Source: Metabacillus sediminilitoris | GTDB taxonomy: Bacteria; Bacillota; Bacilli; Bacillales; Bacillaceae | Length of the DNA stretch: 64,000 nt | NCBI RefSeq assembly: GCF_009720625.1 | Contig: NZ_CP046266.1 | Coordinates: 2,923,501-2,987,500 of the forward strand | Direction: 5' to 3' | Shown here: positions 37,758 through 57,143 of the stretch, one piece after another | How the letters are laid out: each line of letters begins with the position of its first letter | Position numbering within the stretch: the first letter of the stretch is position 1 | Made by a program: the position numbers and the translations under genes | Notes under the pieces: generated by a model | The model's input: the letters and a program-made list of their open reading frames with translations, nothing else | Databases searched by the model: none | What the model was told of the DNA's origin: nothing

Positions 37758-37904
37758 TTGACAAATAAAAATACAGGTAAAGACATGAGAAAAAACGCTC
37801 CTAAAGGGAACAATCCTGGACAACCAGAACCTCTAGATGGCTCAAAAAAAGTTAAAAACGCAAATCATACACGTCAAAAACATAATTCAAGTCACGATAT
37901 GTAA
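37758..37904 (+). CDS. sspP: Small acid-soluble spore protein P
   Basis: 48 residues from TTG 37758 (TAGGAGGG upstream): [20 protein letters not shown], then [19 protein letters not shown] and ending SHDM, closely following SspP (CotL). It is followed by a short terminator and then by a mobile repeat element. Confidence 0.95.
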
Positions 37905-37934
37905 GGAATGGGGCCTCCCCGTTCCTTTTCTTTT
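37905..37934 (+). terminator. Terminator of sspP
   Basis: ggaatgggg / ccccgttcc stem with a 3-base loop, followed by TTTTCTTTTT. Confidence 0.85.
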
Positions 37935-37940
37935 TCATTT

Positions 37941-38148
37941 AGGCTCTTTTCGTAAAGATTGTTGTTTTTAAAACGAAAACTATTTAAGGTTGATTGGAGC
38001 AGATTGCGCGACTCCTGCGGGAGCAGCGGAACAGGCGTTTACGCCAAGGAGGCTCACCGCCCGCCCCGCGGGAAAGCGAGCATCTCTCGCTGCAATCAAC
38101 CACACCGCATTACTTGGTAAATGGCAACAAAGTATGCTAAAACAGCCT
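37941..38148 (+). mobile_element. MITE-like GC-rich palindromic element, copy 1
   Basis: 208 bp with imperfect terminal inverted repeats (aggctctttt at the left, aaaacagcct at the right), flanked on both sides by the 6-base direct repeat tcattt (37935-37940 and 38149-38154). The interior is far richer in GC than the surroundings and contains several hairpins: ctcctgcgggag, ggcgtttacgcc, cccgcggg and agcgag..ctcgct. It encodes no protein. Copy 2 lies at 56915-57102 in reverse orientation. Confidence 0.85.
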
Positions 38149-38307
38149 TCATTTAAAATCATTAACTCTTGCTTCTAAGCGATTTATTCATTTAACTTTC
38201 CTTTGGACAATTTCGCTCACACAAAAAAAGATTCTGAATATTATTGGTACTGGGGGTATTTACTTTTTTGATTAAAGGGAGTTTTCGTTCGATGGAGGTC
38301 AAGCAAA

Positions 38308-50992: not shown

Positions 50993-51079
50993 GATTGATA
51001 GACATAATTAACTAGAGTTGAAATAAATCGATTTTTTCAACATGACCACCACTCTCCCTATTTCGCGTAGGTAATAAGT

Positions 51080-51256
51080 GCATACAATAGGCAGGTCTCC
51101 TGACTTAGGTTCCTCACTTCATATCCCTTCCCATTTCTTTATGAAACAGTGGTTTATGATAAGAAGCTCCCCTTTACAGTGGCGCGACCGTGTCGGAATT
51201 ACACCGACTTCCCTTTTAAGTTAAAAGAATTTAATCATTTAACACCCATTGCCTGA
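51080..51256 (-). promoter_or_regulatory. Cobalamin riboswitch upstream of metE
   Basis: On the minus strand the conserved core reads GTCGGTGTAATTCCGACAC, then GCGCCACTGT and the B12-box AGTCAGGAGACCTGCC. These are the class I cobalamin aptamer segments in the right order and spacing, with a terminator hairpin downstream. It is an OFF switch for metE by inference. Confidence 0.95.
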
Positions 51257-51614
51257 ACATTATTAAATTTTGAAATATTAAAACTTGAGGTTTAGATTAT
51301 ACCATTTTTCGAGATTAAGCAAGGTTTTTCTAATAATATTTTTCAATTTTAAGATTTGTCCCTATGCGAAAGACCATTATTCGTACAAAATAAAATAAGT
51401 AAAAATACACTTGTTAAAATGACTAGTTTTTTATTAAATGAATATAAATATTAATTCACTTGTTTTTACAATAAATTATTAGTATGATCTTAGGACTTTA
51501 ATGCTATAAAAAAGAGTAATCTATGTAGATCTGCTTTTGAAGTTCTAGCATTTTTTCCAATTCATTTAAATGTAATATGTGTTCATTATTACATAAAGAA
51601 GGGGTTATTCCATC
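51257..51614. other. Divergent intergenic region
   Basis: 358 bases between the riboswitch and yebE. It holds the promoters of both presumably; no ORF or further structure was seen. Confidence 0.4.
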
Positions 51615-56650: not shown

Positions 56651-56914
56651 TCCTTATTGTTCTATACACTTTATTTAAGGACTTTAAACTTATCTAAAAT
56701 TTGAAATTTTAAAATAGCTTAATTGCCTTTATTCATTAAAATTCTAATGAATCATACACTTATTTTACCTAAATATGTATCCATTCATGTAAATAAAGAG
56801 TTTATGTAAAACGAAAAGATACTGGTCTGAAAAGTAATTTTTCAAACCAGTATCTAATGTCGTTAACGTGCTATTAAATAAGTATATAGCTTCAACAAAA
56901 AATGATATAAGATA

Positions 56915-57102
56915 AGGTTGTTTTTTCTTATACTTTGTTGCTATTTACCAAGTAATACGGTGTGGTTGATTTCCCTTCAGTTGCTCGCTTTCCTCCGCGG
57001 CGTAAACGCCTGCATGAGTCTCACCTTCCCCGCTGCTCTCGCAGGAGTCTCGCAATCTGCTCCAATCAATCTCAAATGTTTTCGCTCGGGAGAAAAGAGC
57101 CT
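56915..57102 (-). mobile_element. MITE-like GC-rich palindromic element, copy 2
   Basis: 188 bp in the opposite orientation to copy 1 (37941-38148). Its terminal inverted repeats are aggttgtttt (left on the plus strand) and gaaaagagcct (right), flanked by the 6-base direct repeat aagata (56909-56914 and 57103-57108). It shares with copy 1 the blocks ttgattggagcagattgcg, gactcctgcg, aggcgtttacgcc, aaagcgagca, atcaaccacaccg and attacttggtaaat, but the central segment differs. Confidence 0.85.
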
Positions 57103-57143
57103 AAGATAAAAACCCTATTAACTTTTCTAATGCAAATAAAACT

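What the first reader, a model, noticed from the sequence alone, without database searches (positions are those of the whole stretch)
37935..38154. Mobile GC-rich palindromic element with perfect 6-bp target duplication (copy 1)
The 208-bp block between sspP and cotM is bounded by aggctctttt and aaaacagcct and flanked on both sides by tcattt. A second, independently inserted copy in this window has its own different duplication (aagata). Two copies, terminal inverted repeats and two distinct target duplications show transposition and not chance. It codes for nothing, so it must be moved by a transposase elsewhere (a MITE). GC-rich intergenic repeats with similar motifs seem familiar from Bacillaceae genomes, but I cannot name a described family with these ends.
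Basis: seen in the sequence. Interest (0 to 1): 0.8.

Follow-up and report, generated by a model that had tools for sequence, protein, structure and literature searches.

The report
Hitch-hiking hairpin inside a mini-transposon
The block is a genuine mini-transposon without a transposase of its own, traced here to a known transposase family found in related bacteria; at its centre sits a conserved folding module that also rides inside unrelated transposons of the same bacterial order.

Summary
The element is real, but its borders need correcting. It is 206 bp (window 37942-38147, GGC...GCC) with a perfect 8-bp, not 6-bp, duplication (TTCATTTA). Copy 2 (56916-57101, minus strand) has TAAGATAA, 8/8. 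The 5.6-Mb genome has 178 matches to the end motif, reversed control 0; of 72 distinct copies with both ends read, 58 have a duplication of at least 7/8 (shuffled 4.5%). In 19 of 20 relatives sspP stands before cotM, and none has this insertion; one keeps the empty site. The partner is an IS1595-family transposon: six copies elsewhere have the same ends, 8-bp duplications and an uninterrupted transposase. The own genome has none. The unexpected part is the GC-rich ~130-bp centre: absent from 9 of 9 transposase-bearing type A elements checked, yet present in 101 of 150 genomes of the order, inside elements with ends of two IS1595 and three IS1182 kinds. Its borders are sharp and its hairpin is kept by compensatory changes. 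I read it as a structured module captured by several transposon families. Its function is not shown; the searches made found no description of it.

The parts
37942..38147 (+). MITE copy 1 (type A ends GGCTCTTTTCG...CTAAAACAGCC), 206 bp
37934..37941 (.). left copy of the 8-bp target duplication TTCATTTA
38148..38155 (.). right copy of the 8-bp target duplication TTCATTTA
37942..37964 (+). left terminal inverted repeat GGCTCTTTTCGTAAAGATTGTTG
   Evidence: exact match to the end motif; 17 of 23 positions agree with the right end
38125..38147 (-). right terminal inverted repeat GGCTGTTTTAGCATACTTTGTTG (read on the minus strand)
   Evidence: 1 mismatch to the end motif
37989..38100 (+). GC-rich hairpin module GTTGATT...AATCAAC, 112 bp in this copy, which lacks a stretch around AGGTGAGACCCC that the other 52 aligned cores have
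56916..57101 (-). MITE copy 2, 186 bp, shorter inside and with a worn right end
56908..56915 (.). target duplication TAAGATAA of copy 2
57102..57109 (.). target duplication TAAGATAA of copy 2
37903..37927 (+). terminator-like hairpin behind sspP; the element lies directly behind its T-rich tail
   Evidence: consensus match only

Best explanation
The block is a non-autonomous IS1595-type transposon (MITE). Shown: its ends, its 8-bp AT-rich target duplications and its high copy number are those of a transposon family whose members in related bacteria carry an IS1595-family transposase. Inferred: such a transposase, now absent from this genome, bound the ~23-bp ends and moved the MITE in trans by the usual DDE reaction. 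The centre of the MITE is not transposase remnant but a separate ~130-bp hairpin module with sharp borders. Shown: the same module sits inside elements with two IS1595 and three IS1182 end types; in D-type IS1182 copies (L271, L274 and a Peribacillus plasmid copy) it lies between the left end and the transposase gene, on the opposite strand. Inferred: transposons of different families captured the module, and its folded form is what is kept, perhaps as RNA read from the GTTGATTGG strand. My best guess for its use is to shield the transposon or its surroundings, that is to damp transcription or translation running across the insertion, so that insertions are tolerated. My odds: MITE of IS1595 type 0.95, capture of a separate module about 0.7, shielding about 0.2. 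The confidence figure is for the account of what this block is, not for the shielding guess.
For: Ends with duplications of at least 7/8 in 58 of 72 distinct own copies. Niallia plasmid: 1765 bp, one end identical to the motif and the other with 2 mismatches, duplication TTTTTAAA 8/8, IS1595 transposase above cut-off. Of 30 transposase loci of relatives scanned with the type A pattern, 9 with transposase matches of 61-98% identity have type A ends on both sides and duplications of 7/8 or 8/8 (transposase frame uninterrupted in 5, broken or partial in 4); 4 with 39-42% identity have the different ends GGCTCTGTTAA (one letter off in L167) with 8/8 duplications. No IS1595 transposase in the own genome. 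sspP stands before cotM in 19 of 20 relatives, none with this insertion; without element and one duplication the own interval would be 192 bp, and the relative with the best cotM match (L208) has 182. Empty TTCATTTA in a relative. Module: in 0 of 9 type A transposase-bearing elements checked; in 101 of 150 genomes; 85 non-own copies sorted as A 15, B 11, C 3, D 2, C2 1, unassigned 53; C, C2 and D ends on both sides of IS1182-type transposase genes. Fold: 85 cells with double changes against 17 in shuffles, 94.7% paired against at most 50.6% when slid.
Against: 53 of 85 non-own module copies could not be given an end type at the thresholds used, so other carriers, or movement of the module alone, remain possible. 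No transposition was observed. The shielding idea has no support from gene context: of 17 own copies between co-directional genes, 10 lie with and 7 against them; a consensus scan found no promoter-like and no terminator-like site inside the element. The tree of 31 cores mostly keeps end types together (6 changes, least possible 4, weak support), so few captures are needed. 14 of 72 own copies have duplications below 7/8.
Confidence: 0.9

Rival explanations
1. The module is itself an independent mobile element (for example one that moves through an RNA or a single-stranded hairpin) which inserts into or next to transposons and elsewhere.
For: Borders at GTTGATT/AATCAAC: between end types the letters just outside agree at 0.18-0.29 (left) and 0.18-0.45 (right), those next to the anchor inside at 0.59-0.93; 53 of 85 copies without recognised ends; D-type IS1182 elements exist with it (L271, L274) and without it (L265, L266).
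Against: No target duplication of the module itself was noticed in the D-type leaders printed (by eye); at least one unassigned copy (L231) looks by eye like a worn type A element.
Confidence: 0.2
2. The centre is the shared relic of one old ancestral element; the ends drifted apart in different lineages, without capture.
For: The core tree groups mostly by end type.
Against: The ends coincide with those of present-day transposons of two transposase families, IS1595 and IS1182; drift does not turn one into the other. Cores of different end types can be 90-92% alike while their flanks are near chance (two of the three C2 cores were typed by one end only).
Confidence: 0.12
3. The block is a host regulatory RNA or terminator element, spread by other means.
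For: Strong conserved fold; none of 26 own copies with long flanks interrupts a frame of 100 codons or more.
Against: Target duplications, absence at the site in 19 relatives, no clear orientation preference relative to genes, no Rfam match.
Confidence: 0.05

Closest known systems
IS1595 family transposons (NF033547, PF12762)
   Same: Terminal repeats, 8-bp duplications, AT-rich targets; relatives with the same ends carry this transposase.
   Different: The window element has no transposase and carries a GC-rich module that 9 of 9 transposase-bearing copies checked lack.
Prokaryotic MITEs in general (e.g. QMITE2 of Coxiella; review PMC10969869, passages seen)
   Same: 50-500 bp, inverted ends, 7-9-bp duplications in the example, AT-rich intergenic targets, folded transcript.
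   Different: The passages seen explain the small size by decay of transposase and core sequence; here the core is GC-rich, conserved and shared between carriers of two transposase families.
bcr1 of the Bacillus cereus group
   Same: Short mobile repeat of Bacillaceae with a conserved fold (table rows and reference title in PMC2267715 seen).
   Different: Sequences were not compared here; that they differ is my recollection.
Bhal-1 of Bacillus halodurans (74 bp, 36 copies; table rows of PMC2267715 seen)
   Same: Stem-loop repeat of a related Bacillus; could be a fragment of the module.
   Different: No sequence was available, so identity is not tested.
IS1182 family (NF033551)
   Same: Some members carry the same module before the transposase gene (L271, L274, Peribacillus plasmid).
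   Different: Other ends; not the mobiliser of the window element.

Membership tests
MITE | short, no transposase gene, terminal inverted repeats | tested here: met
   206 bp; only short frames inside; ends agree at 17 of 23 positions
MITE | many copies with target duplications | tested here: met
   178 end matches; 58 of 72 duplications at least 7/8
MITE | autonomous relative with the same ends | tested here: met
IS1595-derived element | ends and 8-bp duplication shared with IS1595 transposons | tested here: met
   L147 and 9 of 30 loci
IS1595-derived element | mobilised by an IS1595 transposase | not testable with these tools
   needs a transposition assay
ISL3-derived element | ends shared with ISL3 transposons | tested here: not met
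   no ISL3 gene in the own genome; 3 of 21 genomes of the genus have one; the two loci searched for GGCTCTTT and GGCTGTTT (L135, L136) have neither
IS1182-derived element | ends shared with IS1182 of the own genome | tested here: not met
   the uninterrupted own copy (L037) has ends GGGGCTGTTGACA read by eye, and no type A end pair nearby
IS6-derived element | ends shared with IS6 elements of the own genome | tested here: inconclusive
   only partial or broken matches, no matching end pair near them
known structured RNA | Rfam match | tested here: not met
   window at gathering cut-off, and L003 at E up to 1: no match on the element
conserved structured module | compensatory base changes above controls | tested here: met
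   53 sequences, 30 pairs: 21 pairs with double changes (shuffled mean 8.4), 0 of 500 shuffles as high

The most novel reading that the evidence does not exclude
The GC-rich hairpin is a satellite one level below the MITE: a folded RNA or DNA module that spreads across this order (Bacillales, inferred) by entering transposons of unrelated transposase families, in some as leader of the transposase gene and in others as the whole cargo, because its fold helps carrier or host to tolerate insertion.
Probability: 0.35. Interest if true: 0.82.

Novelty: new variant of a known kind. Interest (0 to 1): 0.6.

Why it matters
MITEs are usually explained as transposons that lost their middle. Here the middle is a conserved folded module shared by carriers of two transposase families, found in 101 of 150 sampled genomes of the order. 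That turns the question of what MITE cores are for into a testable one, and gives a family with at least 72 copies in one genome a named mobiliser.

Tried and rejected
ISL3 was my first guess from the 8-bp duplication and the GGCTCTTT ends; rejected. IS6: only partial or broken copies in the own genome. IS1595 by Pfam in the own genome gave nothing, which at first seemed to exclude the right family; it was found through plasmids. Own copies with one recognised end were printed and one without the core, L118, was read for a hidden transposase; none of its frames was recognised by me, and they were not searched against a library. A viral-contig scan with the end motif gave 3 stretches; frames of one (L144) were listed and no transposon was seen. 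Gene orientation showed no clear bias. Strand of the fold: G-U/U-G cells 45 against A-C/C-A 14, but by pair 12 with only the first, 4 with only the second and 5 with both, so only a hint. The type call L190 (A, duplication 0/8) is probably false and is left in the count of 15. Three loci were dropped as refetched duplicates before the count of 85 (L187, L244, L252). The pair caller found no pair in 17 of 90 own loci; one duplicate was removed to give 72. An error of mine: one search read minus-strand loci from the wrong side and reported no sspP for them; one search repeats it correctly and replaces it. One search likewise did not turn L273 and L286; one search does. One search printed nothing, probably because of an unsupported scoring option, and was repeated.

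Literature: nine searches (listings seen). Passages were read in PMC2267715 and PMC10969869; no other paper was opened. Nothing seen there described this element or module; most subscription journals and ISfinder are not covered.

Full report
What is there. The block between sspP and the next gene is a mobile element, with corrected borders. Read over many copies, the letter next to GGC and GCC varies and belongs to the target. The element is GGCTCTTTTCG...CTAAAACAGCC, window 37942-38147, 206 bp, flanked by TTCATTTA on both sides, 8 of 8. Copy 2 is on the minus strand at 56916-57101, 186 bp, flanked by TAAGATAA, 8 of 8. The element follows the T-rich tail of a terminator-like hairpin behind sspP.

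The family in the own genome. A search with copy 1 lists 41 matches; 40 of 152 first-look candidates were scored. The 23-base end motif has 178 matches with up to 3 mismatches and none for the reversed motif (100 places listed). I read 90 stretches, 30 and 60 fetched mainly around listed ends. A caller found a pair of ends in 73 and none in 17; 72 are distinct. Of these, 40 have a duplication of 8/8, 18 of 7/8 and 14 less; pairing left flanks with right flanks of other copies gives 4.5% at 7/8 or better. The caller weighted the duplication when choosing pairs, so the figure leans upward. The left copies of the duplicated sites are 92% A+T. The GC-rich core was found in 67 of the 73. Lengths run from 87 to 341 bp, 48 of 72 lying between 215 and 236 bp; the one of 341 bp holds a nested repeat. 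In 26 copies with at least 600 bp on both sides none interrupted a frame of 100 codons or more in the joined site; 17 lay between co-directional genes, 10 with and 7 against them, 6 between convergent and 3 between divergent genes.

Insertion at this site. The downstream gene was found in 21 of 21 genomes of the genus, the own one included. Read in the right direction, sspP stands before it in 19 of 20 relatives; in the other (L227) only 164 bases lie before the gene in the stretch held (which replaces). None of the 19 has this insertion. Seventeen have neither the core nor a type A end within 4 mismatches in the interval; L218 has two elements with type A ends and no core match, L220 a diverged core match (70%) in other surroundings. 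The own interval is 406 bp; less element and one duplication it is 192, against 182 in the relative with the best cotM match, L208. L212, and the named uncultured Metabacillus L184, have the uninterrupted TTCATTTA behind the sspP hairpin; Metabacillus bambusae (L183) and Bacillus sp. SA1-12 (L185) lack the element. The genus is probably Metabacillus, inferred from these hits.

The mobiliser. ISL3 transposases, my first guess, are absent from the own genome, and the two loci of the genus that were searched have other ends. Searching plasmids with the ends alone led to a Niallia plasmid: 1765 bp between GGCTGTTTTCGCATAGATTGTTGC and GGCTCTTTTCGTAAGAATTGTTGC, duplication TTTTTAAA 8/8, an IS1595-family transposase and a DinB-like passenger. 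With this transposase, 49 of 100 genomes gave matches and the own genome none. In 30 loci scanned with the type A pattern, 9 had such ends on both sides with duplications of 7/8 or 8/8: L153, L154, L155 (right end 6 mismatches in an ungapped comparison, apparently one base missing), L156, L157, L158, L161, L170, L174. Their transposase matches are 61-98% identical to the query; the frame is uninterrupted in L153, L154, L156, L157 and L158 and broken or partial in the other four. L157 is from the same genus. L169 has a pair with 6/8. Four loci with 39-42% identical matches (L166, L167, L171, L176) have the ends GGCTCTGTTAA, one letter off in L167, and duplications 8/8. The remaining 16 gave no full pair at that setting. 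So, where seen, the ends follow the transposase clade, and the window element belongs to the first clade. Transposases of L147, L153, L157 and L166 are IS1595 family above the NCBIfam cut-off.

The core is something else. Nine type A elements with a transposase and defined borders were checked, six with an uninterrupted frame (L147, L153, L154, L156, L157, L158) and three broken (L155, L161, L170); none contains the GC-rich core, and matches in L156 and L158 lie outside the transposon. Yet the core is in 101 of 150 genomes and 57 of 84 genera of the order, the own genome included. I sorted 85 copies from outside the own genome by ends on both sides: A, GGCTSTTTTC, 15 (13 with duplications of at least 7/8; L190 is probably a false call); B, GGCTCTGTTAA, 11 (8 with at least 7/8); C, GAGGYTGRRACRNAA, 3; D, GACTGTAGRCAAA, 2; C2, GGGGCTGTCTAAAAAGT, 1; none, 53. 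A and B are the ends of the two IS1595 clades. C, C2 and D occur on both sides of DUF772 transposase genes: in 30 such loci, D pairs in L265, L266, L269, C2 pairs in L280, L282, C pairs in L285, L287; the transposases of L274, L285 and L282 are IS1182 family above the NCBIfam cut-off.

The module beside IS1182 transposases. The core matched in 6 of the 30 loci at first look. Turned to the direction of the transposase, 5 have a nearly full core before the transposase frame and on the opposite strand: L271, L273, L274, L279, L286; L278 has partial ones, and L269 a 30-base remnant. A D end lies beyond the core in L271 and L274. In L286 a type A end lies between core and gene, so a type A MITE has probably landed there; L273 and L279 show no recognised end next to the core, and the frame in L279 is short. 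A Peribacillus plasmid copy annotated as IS1182 has the D layout too, with an inner copy of the end sequence before the gene. D elements L265 and L266 have no core. The 30 loci are among the best-scoring ones of 59 genomes with a match, not a random set.

Borders and fold. In 25 copies of the five end types aligned at GTTGATT and AATCAAC, letters just outside agree between types at 0.18-0.29 on the left and 0.18-0.45 on the right; the seven anchor letters agree largely by construction, and the three letters next to them inside agree at 0.93, 0.59, 0.93 and 0.70, 0.70, 0.61. Cores with A and C2 ends reach 92% identity, A and B 90% (two of three C2 cores typed by one end only). An alignment of 53 cores (8 own, 45 others) folds into one long hairpin; of 25 predicted pairs 18 show double changes. 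For a 30-pair structure, 94.7% of cells pair, 85 cells show double changes against 17 in shuffles, 0 of 500 shuffles are as high on any of five measures, and slid structures pair at 50.6% at most; the structure was derived from the same alignment, which favours it. Seven single cores fold with z from -3.7 to -5.7, one of them on its reverse strand at -2.9; the window element has z -4.2. G-U cells outnumber A-C cells 45 to 14, a hint of RNA from the GTTGATTGG strand, but by pair the split is 12 to 4 with 5 mixed. A tree of 31 cores (two C2 labels set by one end) needs 6 changes of end type, with weak support.

Reading. Shown: a MITE with IS1595 ends, most duplications still readable, absent at the orthologous site in relatives, mobiliser family identified, mobiliser not found in the host genome. 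Shown: a conserved folded module inside carriers of two transposase families. Inferred: mobilisation in trans, and capture of the module by several transposons. Guess: that the fold shields carrier or host from transcription or translation across the insertion.

Known and new. A MITE with IS1595 ends is a new member of a known kind. The module shared between IS1595- and IS1182-type elements is the new part; I found no description in the searches listed under Tried and rejected. Bhal-1 of Bacillus halodurans may be a piece of it; this was not tested.

Noticed in passing
L116 and L091 (own genome); also L183 in the sspP-cotM interval: A second GC-rich hairpin repeat (GGAAGCGCCT...AGGCGCTGGAGC type) is nested inside the module at what looks like the same point in two own copies, and a similar-looking one sits between sspP and cotM in Metabacillus bambusae (by eye).
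   Followed up: partly
L005, L045, L193, L195, L198 (alignment A1): A block variant with TTAGAG or TGAGAG replaces the usual GGGAG in cores of type A in one genus and in cores of another genus (L193 type B, L198 C2 by one end, L195 untyped); shared by exchange or arisen twice.
   Followed up: no
L037, own genome 20230-23601: An IS1182 copy with an uninterrupted frame seems to sit inside a terminator-like hairpin, with the arms on both sides (by eye); L265 also has palindromic flanks.
   Followed up: no
L147 2501-4265: The Niallia IS1595 transposon carries a DinB/mycothiol-transferase-like passenger gene.
   Followed up: no
L265, L271, L274, L034: D-type IS1182 elements begin with a ~40-bp hairpin made of the end sequence and its inverse.
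   Followed up: no
window 51073-51264: Cobalamin riboswitch on the minus strand.
   Followed up: no
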